Assembly (NCBI GenBank): GCA_022823725.1
Contig: JAJEHL010000026.1
Span: 372,001 to 436,000, forward strand
DNA: 64,000 nt
Source: Candidatus Latescibacterota bacterium
GTDB lineage: Bacteria; Latescibacterota; UBA2968
Reading direction: 5' to 3'
The stretch's first letter is position 1, and each line of letters opens with the position of its first letter. The notes below the pieces were generated by a model. The model saw nothing but the letters and a program-made list of their open reading frames with translations, searched no databases and was not told the DNA's origin. This document shows, one piece after another, positions 25,649-33,191 of this stretch. The translations under genes and the position numbers were made by a program.

Positions 25649-28600
25649 TCAAGCTGCATTGTCGTAATATGGTGATGGCAATTTAGGGTAGGCGCGGTAG
25701 ATGTGGCGGAAGACGTCTTCGGTTTTTGTTTTTATGTCCTTTTCTGTGTATTTGTGAGGGAGGCCGGTTTCGTCGCTGAAGAGAAAGTCATAGATGGATG
25801 TCCGCACGGCGTCCCGGGTCGCTTCTTTTTCACCCCATTGGTGGACGCGCAGTTTGCTGTCTTTTAGTTTTTTGAGCAGGCTGACGGCCACTTTTTTGAT
25901 TTGTGCGATTTCGCCCGCGTTCAGGTTGGATTTTTTTAACAGGTCGAAGATTGCGAGAGATTCTTCGTCAAGTCCTTCACGAACAGCCCGGTTTTCTTCT
26001 TCATCCAGTTCCTGCACCAATTTGAGCAATGCCTCGAAGGTGCGCTCTATTGTTATCTGGTCTTTTTCGCGGTTGTACGTTGCGACGATTTCTTCGTAGT
26101 AGTGCTGGAAGTCCGTGCGTAATGGGTTTTGCTTCAGTAGGCGTTGCAGTTTTTGTTCTACTGCTTGTCTGAGGTTCTGTACGGTGGTGTTTTTTTCCTG
26201 GATACGCGCGAATTCTCGCTTCAGACGCTCAAAGTCTATCTGGCTGATGTCGTAGGGGTGCCGACCTTCAGCCGCAGAACTCATTTTTGGTTCAATGGCC
26301 TCATCTACTACTCCCTGTAACTGTCTTATGATTTCTGAGATGTCGGCCTGAACACGGTCTTGCTGAAGGCTTTTGTACACGATGTCAATGGCGTCGCGGT
26401 CTTTGCGATAGGTGTTGATGTTTGGCACGTTGACACAGGCTTTGTACTTTTTGAATACTTCGCGGCACATGACTTCGAAGCGTTTGCGGGTTTCGTCGTT
26501 TTCGTTGACGGCTTCTTTGCAGGCTACGATAGCCGCGTTGCGGAGGAAGCCCGTTTTATTGATGATGTCGTCCAGTGGTGCGTTGCGTTTGTCGAGGAAC
26601 TCTCGTACCAGGGCGATGGCTTCGGCGAGGTCTGATAGGAGTTCTTCTTCGGGTTTTGCAGGGTCGGTCGGTGCGCTATCTCCGTCTGGTTGCGTGCCGG
26701 CGAAGGTTGCGAGTGCCTGGCGCAGGTGTACGAGGACGCCGCAGTAATCTACGATCAGGCCGTTGTTTTTGTTTTCGTTCACGCGGTTGGCGCGGGCAAT
26801 GGCCTGCATGAGGGTGTGTGCTTTGAGTGGTTTGTCGAGGTAGAGTGTTGACAGGCACGGGACATCGAAACCCGTTAGCCACATGGCGCAGACAATGGCG
26901 ATGCGGAATGGGTGTTCCTCGTCTTTGAAGGCTTCGTCCAGTTCCATGCGTTGTTTGTTGCGGTACTGCGGTTTGTTTCTCATGGTTTCGGGTAAGTCTA
27001 TGCCTTCTTTGATGAGTTTGCGGTGCGGGATGATGTCCAGTTCCCATTTGTTGAATTTTTCGATTTCGCCCTGTTCTTCGCTGATTACTACGGCTGCACG
27101 GGTCTCGCGCATCCATTCGATCTTCCGCTGCAGATCTGTTTTCTCCTCTTCGTCCGTTATTCGCGATAGCCTTGTTTCCAGTTTCCCGATGTGTTCATGC
27201 CAGTAGAATTCAATCAATCTGTGCATTCGCACGCAGGTTATTTTGTCGATGCAGATCAGCATGGCTTTGCCAGTTTCCCAGGCGGCTGAGTAGTGTCGCG
27301 TGAAGTCTCGCGCCAGTTGGTCGAGGCGTTTGCCTGCGGTGATGATGTGGTAGGCGCGTTTGAGTTCTCGTTCGAGGTGCTGTTCTTCGTCGATGTCGCT
27401 GATTTCGGCTTCTTCCAATTTTTCGGCGATGCGTTCGTTCAAATCATCAACGGCTACGCCCAGTTTGTCACCGCGTGCGTCGTAGTAGAGAGGTAGCGTG
27501 GCTTTGTCTTCTACTGCCCGCTGGAAGTCGTAGGTGGAGACATAGTCGCCGAAGACGCGGCGTGTGATCTGGTCGTCTTTGAACAGGGGTGTGCCTGTGA
27601 AGCCCATGTAGGAAGCGTTAGGCAGGGCGGCGCGCAGATTATCTGCTAACTTGCCGTATTGGGTGCGGTGCGCTTCGTCGGTGATGACGATGATGTCGTC
27701 GCGCTGGGTGTAGCCTTTTTTGGGATCTATGTCCTCCTGGTTGAATTTCTGGATGAGGGAGAAGATGTGCGATTTGTGTTCGGTCAATAGCTGGTTCAGG
27801 TGTGACCCGTCTGCTGCGCGGCAGGGGTCTCGGTCGTGATCTACGACGCCGCAGCCGGCGAAGGTTTTGTAGATTTGTGTGTCGAGGTCCGTGCGGTCTG
27901 TGAGGATGAGGAAGGTGTAGTTGCCAGCGAGTTTGCGATGTACTTTGCGGGTGAAGAGTACCATTGAGTAGCTTTTGCCGGATCCCTGTGTGTGCCAGAA
28001 GACGCCCAGTTTGCCCTGGCGTACTTTGCGGTCACGCACGGCTGCAATTGCGCGGTTTACGCCGAGGAACTGGTGGTTGCGCGCGAGGATTTTCTTTGTT
28101 TCGCCCGATGTGTCGTCGAAGATGATGAAGTTTTCTATGATGTCCATGAAGTCACGTTTGTTGCAGACGCCTTTGAGGAGGGTTTCCATATCGACGACGC
28201 CGGGTTCTTCTTCGGATAGGCGTTTCCATTCGTGAAAATGGTCCCATTCGCTGGTGATAGAGCCGAGTTTTGCTTTTTCGCCGTTGCCAAACATGACGAT
28301 GGCGTTGTGGTGGAAGATATGGGGGATGGTGTCGCGGTAGTCCGAGTAGTTGCCGTTGTACGCGGCTTTGAGGTCCCGGTGGATGTTTTTGCATTCGATG
28401 AAGAGGAGGGGCAGGCCGTTGACGAAGCCGATGATGTCTGCCCGTCTGCGGTAGAGGTCGCCTTTTATCCACAATTCGCGCACGCAGAGGAAGTGGTTGT
28501 TTTCCGGTGTGTCAAAATCGAAGATTCGGAGGCGTTCCCGCACCCGCTCGCCGTTGGCGTTGTGAAATGTGACGGGTACGCCGTCGCGGATGAAATTGTA

Positions 28601-28888
28601 CTTTTCGCGGTTGGTGGCGACGATGCTTTGCGAAGCGGTGGTGGATGTGATTTGCCGGATGGCGTCGTTGTAGGCGTCTTCGGGCAGGTCGGGATTCAGC
28701 GTTCGCAGGGCGGTGAGCAGATGGTGCGTGAGTACGACTTCGCGATCAGAGGTGCGGCCGAGCAGGCCATCCGGTCCGAAGTCCTCGCTGTTGTAGGCAT
28801 AGACGGATTCCCAGCCGAGTTGCTGTTCGAGGTACTCGGCTGTGGTCTGTTGAACGAGGGTGTCTTCGGTGTAGGGGGTTGGGTTCAT
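25649..28888 (-). CDS. hsdR: Type I restriction enzyme R subunit
   Basis: 1079-residue motor and nuclease subunit of a type I restriction-modification system. The N-terminal PD-(D/E)xK nuclease shows Asp151 (RRADIIGF) and E165-x-K167 (LLFIECKN). The SF2 helicase follows: Walker A QGSGKS at 301-306, DEAH at 404-407 and the motif III segment YMGFTGTPLF. The C-terminal region is helical. I chose the ATG at 28888 (MNPTPYTEDT); the frame extends 21 codons to 28951 through a Ser/Gln-rich hexamer-like repeat. Neither start has a clear ribosome site. The matching hsdM and hsdS lie 10-16 kb upstream, and an insertion element sits directly upstream of this gene. Confidence 0.93.
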   Translation of the reverse strand: MNPTPYTEDTLVQQTTAEYLEQQLGWESVYAYNSEDFGPDGLLGRTSDREVVLTHHLLTALRTLNPDLPEDAYNDAIRQITSTTASQSIVATNREKYNFIRDGVPVTFHNANGERVRERLRIFDFDTPENNHFLCVRELWIKGDLYRRRADIIGFVNGLPLLFIECKNIHRDLKAAYNGNYSDYRDTIPHIFHHNAIVMFGNGEKAKLGSITSEWDHFHEWKRLSEEEPGVVDMETLLKGVCNKRDFMDIIENFIIFDDTSGETKKILARNHQFLGVNRAIAAVRDRKVRQGKLGVFWHTQGSGKSYSMVLFTRKVHRKLAGNYTFLILTDRTDLDTQIYKTFAGCGVVDHDRDPCRAADGSHLNQLLTEHKSHIFSLIQKFNQEDIDPKKGYTQRDDIIVITDEAHRTQYGKLADNLRAALPNASYMGFTGTPLFKDDQITRRVFGDYVSTYDFQRAVEDKATLPLYYDARGDKLGVAVDDLNERIAEKLEEAEISDIDEEQHLERELKRAYHIITAGKRLDQLARDFTRHYSAAWETGKAMLICIDKITCVRMHRLIEFYWHEHIGKLETRLSRITDEEEKTDLQRKIEWMRETRAAVVISEEQGEIEKFNKWELDIIPHRKLIKEGIDLPETMRNKPQYRNKQRMELDEAFKDEEHPFRIAIVCAMWLTGFDVPCLSTLYLDKPLKAHTLMQAIARANRVNENKNNGLIVDYCGVLVHLRQALATFAGTQPDGDSAPTDPAKPEEELLSDLAEAIALVREFLDKRNAPLDDIINKTGFLRNAAIVACKEAVNENDETRKRFEVMCREVFKKYKACVNVPNINTYRKDRDAIDIVYKSLQQDRVQADISEIIRQLQGVVDEAIEPKMSSAAEGRHPYDISQIDFERLKREFARIQEKNTTVQNLRQAVEQKLQRLLKQNPLRTDFQHYYEEIVATYNREKDQITIERTFEALLKLVQELDEEENRAVREGLDEESLAIFDLLKKSNLNAGEIAQIKKVAVSLLKKLKDSKLRVHQWGEKEATRDAVRTSIYDFLFSDETGLPHKYTEKDIKTKTEDVFRHIYRAYPKLPSPYYDNAA

Positions 28889-28946
28889 TTTGCGACTCTG
28901 GCTCTCACTCTGGCCCTGACTCTGGCTCTCACTCTGACTCTGGCCT
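28889..28946. repeat. CT-rich hexamer-like repeat at the hsdR start
   Basis: Plus-strand units of the form CTCTGG/CTCTCA/CTGACT repeat about nine times. On the minus strand this reads in frame as Ser/Gln/Glu repeats before the hsdR ATG. Copy-number change by six bases would keep frame. Confidence 0.7.
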
Positions 28947-28977
28947 GTCATCGCGGCAGGGTGTTAGCCGCGATCCA
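28947..28977. repeat. Dispersed palindrome, short (31-nt) form
   Basis: GTCATCGCGGC and GCCGCGATCCA arms around AGGGTGTTA. It differs from the copy at 52810-52840 only in the loop. Confidence 0.85.
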
Positions 28978-29034
28978 GTGTTTTTTGCTTTTGACTTTCA
29001 TCCTGCTCATCCTTTCATCTTGCCCATCCTGATG

Positions 29035-29058
29035 AACTGGTCTGGAAATCGACCAGTT
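29035..29058. repeat. Perfect 8-bp hairpin outside the insertion element
   Basis: AACTGGTC-tggaaatc-GACCAGTT, between the hsdR leader and the left subterminal repeat of the IS element. No T run follows. Confidence 0.6.
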
Positions 29059-29100
29059 GTACAGGTATAAGAAAGTCAAGAGATAAAAGTGCCAAATTCG

Positions 29101-29278
29101 TGAGCGAGCAGGTATTCCTGCCAGATATGTCTCAGGGCTTTACACAGGTATATCATTCAGGGTCAGTGCCCTTAAATTGCTTCATTCAAGCTCCTGAGAA
29201 GGCAGGCGAACAGGTCACCGCTTCAGGGTCAAAGCCCGTATGTACAACTTCGTTCTATCCTGCTCATCCCAGGAGCTT
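29101..29278 (-). ncRNA. Candidate bridge RNA region of the IS element
   Basis: Non-coding 3' end after the transposase. Visible pairings: GCAGG-tatt-CCTGC (29108-29121), TCTCAGG with CCTGAGA (29130-29136/29193-29199) and AAGCTCCTG with CAGGAGCTT (29188-29196/29270-29278); the last two compete. Two internal copies of TTCAGGGTCA-nn-GCCC (about 29157 and 29222) could lie in two similar loops, as expected if donor and target guides share a core. The RNA is inferred from family knowledge; no transcript evidence exists here. Confidence 0.5.
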
Positions 29279-30545
29279 AAGCTGCTTTTTTTATTTGAGA
29301 TACGGTTTTTTCCTTTTTGGTGTTGCAGTCTATGTTGAAAGTTTCTTGTTTATAGACGAGCGCAAACAGGATGCGTAAGAGTTTAGAGCAAAGGGCAATA
29401 ATGGCTTTTTGTGTGGGTTTTCCCGCCCCTTTGAATCGGTGATAGGCCTGATGGAAGATGGGATTATGGAAGATGAGGGGCAAGACGGCTGTATAGAGGA
29501 TGCGTCTAAGTCTTGCCCGTCCCCTTTTGGTGATTCTTCTCTTGCCCTTTTTATGTCCTGAAGAGATTTCAAAGAGGTTTAAGCCAGCCAGTTTGATGAG
29601 TTGTTCAGGTGCCTCATAAGCCTCAAAGGGGCCTGTTTCGCCGAGGATGGATGCCACACTGATCGGTCCCAGTCCAGGGATTGAGCACATATATCCAGCT
29701 TGAGGTATATGTTGTAGATGTTCATTCATTTGGGTTTCGATTTCTTGCAGTTGGGTTTTAAGCAGATCGAGTAAGCAGAGGGTTTGCATCAGTTCGAGGC
29801 AGACACTGGCTCTGGCCTGGGTCACGCCAATGGAGGTGTGAGCCGCTTCAAAGACAGCCTGTGCTTTGGCTTTGGAGAGGCGACGGTTTGATGCCTTTTG
29901 GATCAGTGTGGTAAGTTCATCAATGCCAAGGGCTTGTATCTGCAAAGGCGTAGGTGCTACGTTGAGGAGTTCTCGCGCGGTTTTGCCTGTTATATCGCTG
30001 AAGAGGGTCACAAACTCAGGAAAGAGGACATCCAGGATACGATGCAGCACGTTTTTAGCCTGTGTGATTTGATCTTTCTTGTGATAACGCATCGCTGTCA
30101 AGGCACGCAAATCGGCATAGACCCCTTCAGGCAGATAGGCACTATGAGACTTGCCCTGGCGTATCATATCAGCGATGACACCCGCATCCTTGTCGTCTGT
30201 TTTTAAGGGACTGTTGTCCCCCATCTCTTTCGACCAGCGCACATGGGAAGGCTGAATCAGGACGAAGGGTTGTTTATGAGCACGCAGAAAGTAAGCCAAC
30301 GGCAGCCAATAATGTCCAGTAGGTTCCATACCAATGAGGGCTGCCACACACCGATGGTGCTTTTCAACCTGTCGGATTTTGTCCAGCAATGACATAAAGG
30401 ACATCCCTTCATTGTAGAGTTTGAATGCGGCGATCTGCCTGCCTTCTAACATCATCTTGACGAAGTGAACCGATTTACCGATATCAATGCCAACGATCAA
30501 GGTGTTGGGTTCTACATACGCGATTTGCTTGTGATGCTTGGCCAT
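29277..30545 (-). CDS. IS110-family transposase (DEDD recombinase)
   Basis: 422-residue recombinase. The RuvC-like domain shows Asp21 (IVGIDIGKSVHF), Glu74 (IGMEPTGHYW) and Asp117/Asp120 (KTDDKDAGVIADMI); the C-terminal transposase-20 domain has YMCSIPGLGPISVASILGE. In this family a bridge RNA pairs donor and target DNA, and a serine in the second domain makes the covalent link. The frame is full length with no stop or shift, so the element may be active. GAGGAGGC precedes the start. Confidence 0.95.
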   Translation of the reverse strand: MAKHHKQIAYVEPNTLIVGIDIGKSVHFVKMMLEGRQIAAFKLYNEGMSFMSLLDKIRQVEKHHRCVAALIGMEPTGHYWLPLAYFLRAHKQPFVLIQPSHVRWSKEMGDNSPLKTDDKDAGVIADMIRQGKSHSAYLPEGVYADLRALTAMRYHKKDQITQAKNVLHRILDVLFPEFVTLFSDITGKTARELLNVAPTPLQIQALGIDELTTLIQKASNRRLSKAKAQAVFEAAHTSIGVTQARASVCLELMQTLCLLDLLKTQLQEIETQMNEHLQHIPQAGYMCSIPGLGPISVASILGETGPFEAYEAPEQLIKLAGLNLFEISSGHKKGKRRITKRGRARLRRILYTAVLPLIFHNPIFHQAYHRFKGAGKPTQKAIIALCSKLLRILFALVYKQETFNIDCNTKKEKTVSQIKKAA

Positions 30546-30681
30546 GGTTGCCTCCTCGAAGAATATAATTTATGATTTTTTGCCTCTTCGAATTTGGCAA
30601 CTATGGCCTGTTTACTCAACTTTTTTCTTTAACCTTTATTATAGCAATCACCGCTTTAGACGGTGTTTGTTGTCATTGCGG

Positions 30682-31434
30682 TCAATCAACCAGAGGTTGA
30701 AAATCCTCGCTCTCCATCGGTTCATATCCGTCCCACTGACCACGCATTTCAATCAAAACGCGCTGTGTCATCGGAGACGGTGGGGGGTTGACCCGCACCA
30801 CATGCGCCGTGTACTCTCCAGGCGATTCGGTCATTGCTCTCGCCATCTCGGAAACGATATAACGCGGGGTCCAGCCAATCATGTGGTAATCCGTTGTCTG
30901 GAGTTGCACAGCCAGACCAGTCACTGGATTGGTCAGTTCCAGCGTGACATAAAGTTCTTCTCCCGGCTTCAGCGCATTCAGTCTTTCTTGCGCGGGGAGG
31001 CTTGTGTGTCGCCAGCCATGCAGGAAAAACCGGCAGACAAAACTTCCATCGTTGGCTTTTACCAGTTTGGGAAAGACCTCGTAATCGTCGGTTACTCGAT
31101 AGCCACCGCTTACCGATAGCATATCGAAAGGGTCGGCACTTTCAGGCAGGTCGAGTCGCTGAATATGATCGGCGAAGTCCGGTCTGTTCGGCTTCATAAC
31201 CCGATTTTGGAACAGGTAAAATAGTTCTGAAGATCGGTAATCTCTATGCAGTTGGGGAAAGCTCGGGAGGGGAGGATAATTCAAATCCTGCTGTGCCCGC
31301 ATAGCTCCGCCCGTATAGCGGAAGCGATAAAGCGACGGTCCGATATCCAATCTGCCCAACGGAAACCAGGGGCGGCCCTCCCCTCTTTTGTACTGCCACG
31401 CTAGGAATAAAGTCTTTTGTATCTTCTGTGTCAT
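30682..31434 (-). CDS. HIRAN-like domain protein, last gene of the ABC-3C operon
   Basis: 250-residue protein. The N-terminal half (FPLGRLDIGPSLYRFRYTG, LPSFPQLHRDYRSSELF, LFQNRV) resembles HipA-type N-terminal beta domains. The C-terminal half (LKPGEELYVTLELTNPVTGL, then IGWTPRYIVSEMARAM) matches the HIRAN pattern, a domain that recognises DNA ends or stalled forks in HLTF-type proteins. Its start ATG overlaps the stop of the DUF2326 ATPase by four bases (ATGA), so it is translated with the ABC-3C genes. Inference: it supplies DNA-lesion or phage-DNA recognition to that system. An IS element follows about 80 bp after its stop. Confidence 0.7.
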   Translation of the reverse strand: MTQKIQKTLFLAWQYKRGEGRPWFPLGRLDIGPSLYRFRYTGGAMRAQQDLNYPPLPSFPQLHRDYRSSELFYLFQNRVMKPNRPDFADHIQRLDLPESADPFDMLSVSGGYRVTDDYEVFPKLVKANDGSFVCRFFLHGWRHTSLPAQERLNALKPGEELYVTLELTNPVTGLAVQLQTTDYHMIGWTPRYIVSEMARAMTESPGEYTAHVVRVNPPPSPMTQRVLIEMRGQWDGYEPMESEDFQPLVD

Positions 31435-33191
31435 TTGGGTGGTCGATCAAAATAAAAACCCAACAGACTTTTAGAGGGATCTTCGTCGGTGAGGGTCAGC
31501 CGAACATGCTTATCGAAGTTAAAGCCATCGCTAAAGTCATCTCGCGGAACCATATCTGAATTTAGGGTGCAAATGTACTGTGCATTATTTGCACTTGACA
31601 CCTTGCTCGCATGCTCAAGTGCAAGTGCTCGTTGCCTGGAGTCAACACCGTCATAAAGGCCACTGTCATGAATCAAGAAATTGAGTCTATTATTCTGTTT
31701 TGACATGATTTGTAATAGCATCAAATCGAAGCAGAAAATTTTCATCTTTTCAATGCCTTCGCTACCACTCTTGTCTATCTCGACATCGTACTTGAACCCT
31801 GTTTCATCAATATTAATCACCAGGTGCCCGGCTGCCTCGTAAAGTGCTTGAGAATTGTCATTGAAGAGACGCAGTGGAACGCTCCAAATATCTCTGCGTT
31901 CTTCGTGATCTTGCTCAGCAATCTTAGTCAGTTCCGCTTTCGCTATATTTATGTTGCGTTTCCGCGAGGTTCTATCTCTTATTTCTTCGAGCCAGGTACG
32001 TTTCTGTTCTAAATTGCCACGTATTTCAATGATGCGTTCTTGGAGTTTAGCCAGTTCTTGCATTGCTCCGTGCGTTTCAAGGATTCTAAGCAAACCAGCC
32101 CTCTCATCAGTATGTCGTCTGATTTCATCGTTTTGAAGTCTGATTTTACGTTCTATGCGCCTGATTTCTGTTTCGAGAAAGGCTCGCCTATTCTCGATAA
32201 TTTTCGAATGAAATTCTTTGGCTTCGGTAAGAGTACGGCGAACTAAGTCGGGAAAAATTACACCGCTTTCTTCGTAGATATTGTCAATGGCTGTGTTAGA
32301 AGGCGGTGTCTCTGCTTCGACTGACTCTTTGTATCGTGACAATCGCCTTTGATCAACAATGTTCTCATTGTTCAAATTGTGAATGGTTTTGGTGATCCTA
32401 TCGGCTTCGTTCTGAATTGTTTCGTACTGCGGGTGTACTTTGAATCCTTCTAAGGCATCTGATTCACGTTTGAATTGATTTTCTAATTGAACGCATTCCG
32501 CCTCTAACTCGCCAACTGAACCCCTTGCGCCTTCCATAGCTCCCGACTTAATCGCTTGATCGATTGCCCTAATGCCCCTTTCCTGATCTTTCAGTTCTTG
32601 ACATTTAGACGCATTCTCCCAATTCATTCCAAGCAGAAACGCGATGTGAAGTTGCCTGTCCCATGTCGTTTGGTAACGGGTATGACTGAAGGGGTCTATG
32701 TAAGCGTCTGTACGGCGTCTTATGAAATATGAAATCAGACTACGGAAAGAAGGCTTGTACTTGGTATTATAGCTAGAGTGCAAGTCAAATAAAGCCTCCC
32801 CAAAGAGTGCCCGCCAGCGGTCTAAATTGGACCTCCTTCCTCTGAAGAGACCGTCGTGATCAGATTCTTCAACCCAGCCAGCCGTTGGGCCTTCTATATA
32901 CAGCCGGTTCGGACTTTTAATAGCGCGCGTCACTTTCACAGGGTTGCCCGCAAGTGTAATTTCCAATGTAAATTCCCAATCTTGCAATGGCTCTATAGAG
33001 AGGCCCTGCCCCTTGCGAACGTTGGCACCCAAACAAAAGTCAATAATGTCAATTAGAGTGGATTTACCCAGACCATTTCGTGTGTCCTTTTGAGTAGATT
33101 CCTCAGTGCGGTCTGCTAAAACGACATTCAGTCCCGGTTTAAATTCCACTGTATGAAATGAAAGTTTATTGGCAGTAATGCGATGGATCAT
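31431..33191 (-). CDS. ABC-3C system ATPase (DUF2326, SMC/RecN-like)
   Basis: 586-residue ABC-type ATPase split by a long coiled coil. Walker A NGLGKST lies at residues 39-45 after the N-terminal strand FKPGLNVVLADRTEES. The coiled coil spans about residues 205-430 (EIRRIERKIRLQNDEIRRH and others). The C-terminal half contains IEKMKIFCFDLMLLQIM and LNFLIHDSGLYDGVDSRQ, the Walker B region of DUF2326. In three-component ABC systems this ATPase is thought to sense DNA and activate an effector. It overlaps the middle-component gene upstream and the HIRAN-like gene downstream by ATGA. Confidence 0.9.
   Translation of the reverse strand: MIHRITANKLSFHTVEFKPGLNVVLADRTEESTQKDTRNGLGKSTLIDIIDFCLGANVRKGQGLSIEPLQDWEFTLEITLAGNPVKVTRAIKSPNRLYIEGPTAGWVEESDHDGLFRGRRSNLDRWRALFGEALFDLHSSYNTKYKPSFRSLISYFIRRRTDAYIDPFSHTRYQTTWDRQLHIAFLLGMNWENASKCQELKDQERGIRAIDQAIKSGAMEGARGSVGELEAECVQLENQFKRESDALEGFKVHPQYETIQNEADRITKTIHNLNNENIVDQRRLSRYKESVEAETPPSNTAIDNIYEESGVIFPDLVRRTLTEAKEFHSKIIENRRAFLETEIRRIERKIRLQNDEIRRHTDERAGLLRILETHGAMQELAKLQERIIEIRGNLEQKRTWLEEIRDRTSRKRNINIAKAELTKIAEQDHEERRDIWSVPLRLFNDNSQALYEAAGHLVINIDETGFKYDVEIDKSGSEGIEKMKIFCFDLMLLQIMSKQNNRLNFLIHDSGLYDGVDSRQRALALEHASKVSSANNAQYICTLNSDMVPRDDFSDGFNFDKHVRLTLTDEDPSKSLLGFYFDRPPK

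What the first reader, a model, noticed from the sequence alone, without database searches (positions are those of the whole stretch)
29090..30599. IS110/IS1111-type element with subterminal repeats and a structured 3' non-coding end
Seen: 11-bp perfect subterminal inverted repeats, an intact DEDD transposase, about 180 nt of non-coding DNA after the gene with three stems, two of which compete, and two copies of TTCAGGGTCA-nn-GCCC. Known: IS110-family recombinases use bridge RNAs; IS1111-type elements carry them downstream of the gene. Inference: this region encodes the bridge RNA, and the repeated motif marks the two guide loops.
Basis: partly seen in the sequence, partly recalled or inferred. 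Interest (0 to 1): 0.7.

Follow-up and report, generated by a model that had tools for sequence, protein, structure and literature searches.

The report
RNA-guided jumping gene targeting REP repeats
This is a well-preserved jumping gene of the IS110 superfamily whose tail encodes a two-loop guide RNA: one loop matches the repeated DNA it sits in, the other matches its own ends, and a sister copy in the same genome has changed guide letters that fit its different landing site.

Summary
Empty copies of a REP-like hairpin repeat place the element at 29064-30650 (1587 bp, core CA), not 29090-30599. The 11-bp inverted repeat is real but internal; a better subterminal repeat is TATAAGAAAG/CTTTATTATA (9 of 10) next to the ends. 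The 213-nt region after the transposase gene forms two hairpin-tipped loops, and the repeated motif is the tip of each. The first loop carries guides matching both flanks of the target; the second carries guides matching the element's own two ends. A second full copy in this genome (82% identical) sits in a different repeat, GATGGACA|CAGATGAA, and its guides have changed to fit. The two-loop layout recurs in 20 of 61 distant Bacillota relatives, with covarying stems; in 19 of 19 examined, one target guide matches the copy's own flank. Joining the ends would create a TTGACT-17-TATAAT promoter. New member of a known kind: bridge RNA/seekRNA elements. The anatomy and guide order are IS1111-like, but the transposase (422 aa) is not IS1111 by length or sequence. 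RNA expression was not observed.

The parts
29064..30650 (-). Whole element (1587 bp, one CA core copy counted, gene on - strand)
   Evidence: Empty REP sites against occupied sites; shared outer ends in the other copies
29030..29063 (+). Left part of the host REP-like hairpin repeat (target, RE-side flank), ending in the CA core 29062-29063
   Evidence: Empty copies in this and congeneric genomes
30649..30661 (+). CA core (30649-30650) and right part of the target, CACCGCTTTAGAC (LE-side flank)
   Evidence: Same comparison
29277..30545 (-). Transposase/recombinase gene, 422 aa, DEDD and Ser-Gly motifs intact
29064..29276 (-). RE: non-coding region encoding the bridge RNA
   Evidence: Guide matches and conserved structure
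29241..29249 (-). Target loop, 5' guide (RNA AGUUGUACA, same letters as the left flank; core included)
   Evidence: Inverted pair I10 with 29055-29063; swap test
29216..29226 (-). Target loop, 3' guide (complement of CACCGCTTCAG; core included)
29226..29237 (-). Tip hairpin of the target loop, GGG-CTTTGA-CCC
   Evidence: Motif; conserved class RRR-CNNNGA-YYY in relatives
29202..29211 (-). Stem P1 3' strand; partner at 29252-29263
   Evidence: Fold; equivalent stem covaries in relatives
29160..29171 (-). Tip hairpin of the donor loop, GGG-CACTGA-CCC
   Evidence: Motif; relatives
29176..29181 (-). Donor loop, 5' guide AGCAAU (matches LE end at 30642-30647)
   Evidence: Read directly; only 6 nt, weak alone
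29144..29152 (-). Donor loop, 3' guide (matches ACAGGTATA at 29061-29069, RE end plus core)
   Evidence: p 0.013 against shuffled guides
29188..29199 (-). Shared strand of the two competing stems; pairs with 29267-29278 or with 29131-29140
29066..29075 (+). Better candidate subterminal repeat, left arm TATAAGAAAG; right arm CTTTATTATA at 30634-30643, 9 of 10
   Evidence: Read directly from the ends
29074..29079 (-). -35 box TTGACT of the predicted circle-junction promoter; -10 box TATAAT at 30638-30643, spacing 17
   Evidence: Joined ends; no such pair anywhere in the linear window
29090..29100 (+).

Best explanation
An IS110-superfamily element of 1587 bp that moves by RNA-guided recombination. 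Its 3' non-coding region encodes a bridge RNA (seekRNA). In the first loop one arm pairs with the target half on the RE side and the other with the half on the LE side, on opposite DNA strands, both including the CA core. In the second loop the arms pair with the two element ends as joined in its circular form. Joining the ends would also build a sigma-70-type promoter that transcribes the transposase gene and the bridge RNA together. The window copy is programmed for a genus-wide REP-like hairpin. A sister lineage in the same genome is programmed for a different repeat through changed bases in the target guides. Shown by sequence: ends, target, guide matches, co-change of guide and target, conserved and covarying stems in relatives. 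Inferred: that the RNA is made, binds the transposase and directs recombination.
For: Empty and occupied REP sites fix the ends. Target guides match both flanks up to and including the core (9 and 8 contiguous). Each of two sibling copies' guides fit their own target type better than the other's (18 against 11-14; 15-16 against 12-14). Two tip hairpins recur 66-69 nt apart in 20 of 61 relatives plus the window (0.28 expected). Stems 97.7% paired with 7 pairs changed on both sides, no shuffle as high. In 19 of 19 relatives the 3' target guide matches the LE-side flank at a near-constant place, variant guides meeting variant flanks. Junction promoter. Published precedents PMC11208160, PMC11187229.
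Against: No RNA or activity data. The donor 5' guide match is only 6 nt and, like several guide matches in relatives, is not above chance on its own. The sister copies' targets carry mismatches to their guides. The most stable predicted fold closes the target loop with the upstream strand instead of opening both loops.
Confidence: 0.92

Rival explanations
1. Only the target loop acts: a 70-100-nt seekRNA finds the target, and the second loop is a remnant or processing signal while the ends are recognised by protein.
For: IS1111 transposases co-purify mainly with target-loop RNAs of 70-100 nt, which suffice for movement (PMC11187229). The strongest predicted fold seals about that stretch, 29188-29278.
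Against: The second loop matches the element ends here, one arm by 8-9 nt, and its stem and tip hairpin are conserved in relatives. Both views can hold if the long RNA is processed.
Confidence: 0.2
2. The element ends at the 11-bp repeats as first proposed, and the outer 26 and 51 bp belong to another small repeat into which it inserted.
For: The 11-bp repeat is perfect and lies near both ends.
Against: No copy of the outer sequence without the element was found in the genome or genus. All copies carry both outer segments. Empty REP sites join exactly at the outer ends. The repeat is only 9 of 11 in the sister copy.
Confidence: 0.03
3. The 3' structure is a terminator or mRNA-protecting element, and the guide matches are coincidence.
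For: The region is strongly structured, which alone would not need guides.
Against: Guide and target changed together in a sibling copy, and the same rule holds in 19 relatives.
Confidence: 0.02

Closest known systems
IS1111 family with seekRNA (ISEc11, ISPa11, IS4321; PMC11187229)
   Same: RNA region after the gene; guide complementary to the top strand comes first; short asymmetric end extensions; junction promoter; REP targets known (ISPa11); natural retargeting known (ISEc11/ISXne4)
   Different: Transposase 422 aa against 330-350 and not close to IS4321; subterminal repeat 10 bp with one mismatch and overlapping the -10 box
IS621 / IS110 group bridge RNA (PMC11208160, PMC11208158)
   Same: Two hairpin-tipped loops, target loop first and donor loop second; core included in the target guides; DEDD and Ser domains
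   Different: RNA lies after the gene, not before it; order of top- and bottom-strand guides reversed; longer transposase; core CA/TG instead of CT
Unnamed IS110-like elements of Bacillota (L080, L145 and others)
   Same: Same 3' layout, tip hairpins 66-69 nt apart, same guide rule, about 420-aa transposase
   Different: About 36-40% protein identity; different target and ends; the upstream competing strand was not seen there

Membership tests
IS110 superfamily (broad) | DEDD (RuvC-like) N-terminal domain and PF02371 C-terminal domain with Ser-Gly motif | tested here: met
   PF01548 104.7 bits, PF02371 77.6 bits; NF033542 231.9 bits over cut-off 140; S329-G330 invariant
IS110 superfamily (broad) | Non-coding RNA region with two guide loops matching target and donor | tested here: met
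   donor 5' guide weak alone
IS110 superfamily (broad) | Circular intermediate, and RNA bound to the transposase | not testable with these tools
   Only the predicted junction promoter
IS1111 family (strict) | Long non-coding region downstream of the gene | tested here: met
   213 nt after the gene, 105 nt before it (ends; gene)
IS1111 family (strict) | Top-strand guide precedes bottom-strand guide | tested here: met
   compared with PMC11187229
IS1111 family (strict) | Subterminal inverted repeats of 11-13 bp with 7 (or 6) and 3 bp extensions | tested here: inconclusive
   10 bp, 9 of 10, extensions 6+3 or 7+2 depending on the core assignment; overlaps the -10 box
IS1111 family (strict) | Transposase of 330-350 aa related over its full length to IS1111 transposases | tested here: not met
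   422 aa; IS4321 27.8 bits, C-terminal part only, against IS621 35.9 bits
IS110 family (strict, IS621-like) | RNA region upstream of the gene, bottom-strand guide first | tested here: not met
   RNA region lies downstream and the guide order is reversed

The most novel reading that the evidence does not exclude
The competing stems are a working switch: strand 29188-29199 pairs either upstream, sealing an about 90-nt target-only guide RNA, or downstream, closing the donor stem of the two-loop bridge form. The upstream partner overlaps the stop codon, so translation of the transposase could tip the choice.
Probability: 0.12. Interest if true: 0.7.

Novelty: new member of a known kind. Interest (0 to 1): 0.42.

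Why it matters
It extends bridge-RNA logic to a little-described branch (about 420-aa transposase, RNA after the gene) and offers a natural experiment: two sibling lineages in one genome whose target guides changed to fit two different host repeats while the donor guides stayed nearly the same. The guide rule reads out targets of the Bacillota relatives from sequence alone, so it can be checked widely.

Tried and rejected
The first genome-contig scan with the single protein found no relative. A search for the REP hairpin with a 7-nt loop found nothing because the loop is 8 nt (my error). Rfam has no matching family. The donor-end motif has no match in viral contigs. The orthologous locus in G002 (L063) lacks both the element and the REP, so it is not an exact empty site. 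RNAalifold on an alignment including the window sequences was uninformative because the first stem misaligns, so structure was counted on 19 relatives only. The counted structure was written by me after looking at one of those sequences, which favours it on percentage paired; the both-sides changes are the stronger part. Rejected: ends at the 11-bp repeat; a nested host repeat around a shorter element; strict IS1111 membership.

Full report
Observation. The transposase gene is on the minus strand at 29277-30545 (422 aa), with both IS110-superfamily domains and the catalytic residues in register with IS621. The motif pair is far beyond chance (0 in 100 shuffles). The 11-bp repeat is not striking: two further perfect 11-bp inverted pairs lie in the same 1.67 kb, and the sister copy has it at 9 of 11.

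Ends. The genome holds a second full copy (C37, 82% identical) and, at contig ends, three left and three right ends of further copies. A REP-like hairpin repeat, in consensus GAACTGGTC-n8-GACCAGTTGTACAYCGCTTCAGAC, occurs without the element in this genome, and sites within 3 mismatches of its 3' part occur in 10 of 11 genomes of the genus with no match to the control pattern. Comparing empty with occupied sites gives GTTGTACA[GGTATAAG...GCAATCA]CCGCTTTAGAC: core CA, element 29064-30650. A congener (G007) carries the same outer ends in REP-like sites, broken at contig ends. The C37-type copies sit in GATGGACA|CAGATGAA, and 33 exact or one-mismatch sites of this type occur in the genome (control 0). 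The orthologous locus in G002 lacks both REP and element.

Guides. In the RNA strand, stem P1 (29252-29263 with 29202-29211) encloses two arms around the first tip hairpin. The 5' arm carries AGTTGTACA, the same letters as the left flank up to and including the core, so it can pair with the opposite DNA strand. The 3' arm is complementary to CACCGCTT-AG of the right flank. Scored against both target types, each copy's guides fit their own better: for the window 18 of 21 plus one G-U pair against 11-14, for C37 15-16 against 12-14. The second tip hairpin is flanked by AGCAAT and TATACCTG, matching the LE end and the RE end plus core. The longer match exceeds shuffled guides (p 0.013); the 6-nt one does not on its own and is read from its position. 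The donor guides are nearly unchanged between the two copies.

Family. A profile scan returned 80 loci at 32-40% identity, almost all Bacillota. Of 61 non-redundant relatives, 20 carry two hairpins of the form RRR-CNNNGA-YYY with a following TG, 67-69 nt apart (66 in the window); with the window this is 21 of 63 against 0.28 expected from shuffles. In 19 aligned relatives the two guide stems and two tips are 97.7% paired with 7 pairs changed on both sides; no shuffle reached either value, and slid controls fall to 31-50% paired. In all 19 the 3' target guide matches the LE-side flank at a near-constant place, and variant guides (GGGAAGCAT, AGCAGCAT, CGAGGAGCAT) meet equally variant flanks. The 5' target guide and the donor guides match at the expected place in some relatives, but individually are often no better than shuffled guides.

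Promoter and repeats. Joining the ends gives TTGACT-17 bp-TATAAT; no such pair exists in the linear window. The candidate subterminal repeat TATAAGAAAG/CTTTATTATA lies at IS1111-like distances but overlaps the -10 box, so a separate role is unsure.

Comparison. Anatomy and guide order follow IS1111 as described in PMC11187229: RNA after the gene, top-strand guide first. IS4321 of plasmid R751, fetched as a yardstick, shows the same order by eye (AAAACGGAA complementary to its right flank TTCCGTTTT comes first). The transposase does not follow: 422 aa against 330-350, and no closer to IS4321 (27.8 bits) than to IS621 (35.9 bits). I therefore file it in the broad IS110 superfamily with IS1111-like anatomy. 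Natural retargeting between relatives is already known (ISEc11/ISXne4, PMC11187229), and REP repeats are known targets of IS elements (PMC1525189, PMC11187229), so the kind is known; the two-target pair inside one genome is a clean new example.

Open points. RNA was not observed. The shared strand of the competing stems is identical in both local copies, but I saw no upstream partner in the relatives. Free folding favours the upstream partner by 5-10 kcal/mol, which would yield a target-only RNA of the size seen for IS1111 seekRNAs. Whether this is a switch is untested.

Noticed in passing
25649-28951 and 30682-33191: The element sits between a type I restriction R-subunit gene and a pair matching candidate anti-phage families PDC-M03B (weak HIRAN hit) and PDC-M68B (DUF2326), so the neighbourhood looks like a defence island.
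   Followed up: partly
28889-28951: The 5' end of the R-subunit gene is a short tandem repeat coding SQSESQSQGQSESQS.
   Followed up: no
28990-29063 and L009-L020: Intergenic repeats of the type CATCCTGATCATCC and the REP-like hairpin CTGGTC-n8-GACCAG are spread across the genus; one orthologous locus (L063) lacks the hairpin, so the REP itself comes or goes.
   Followed up: partly
L003-L008: Three left ends and three right ends of further copies stop about 130 bp inside the element at contig ends, as expected for collapsed near-identical repeats; their guide loops are not assembled.
   Followed up: partly
L080-L148 (Bacillota relatives): Their flanks suggest a palindromic target of the type CTTATTgaACTAAcGGGGCA...TTAGTTgAATAAG, read by eye. 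Intrinsic-terminator-like hairpins lie just upstream in 13 of 56 copies against 2.3 expected, but several of these copies come from one genome.
   Followed up: partly
29090-29100 / 30589-30599: The internal 11-bp inverted repeat would lie on both sides of the junction promoter in the circle, and its RNA copies could pair the 5' and 3' ends of the transcript. Role unknown; 9 of 11 in the sister copy.
   Followed up: no
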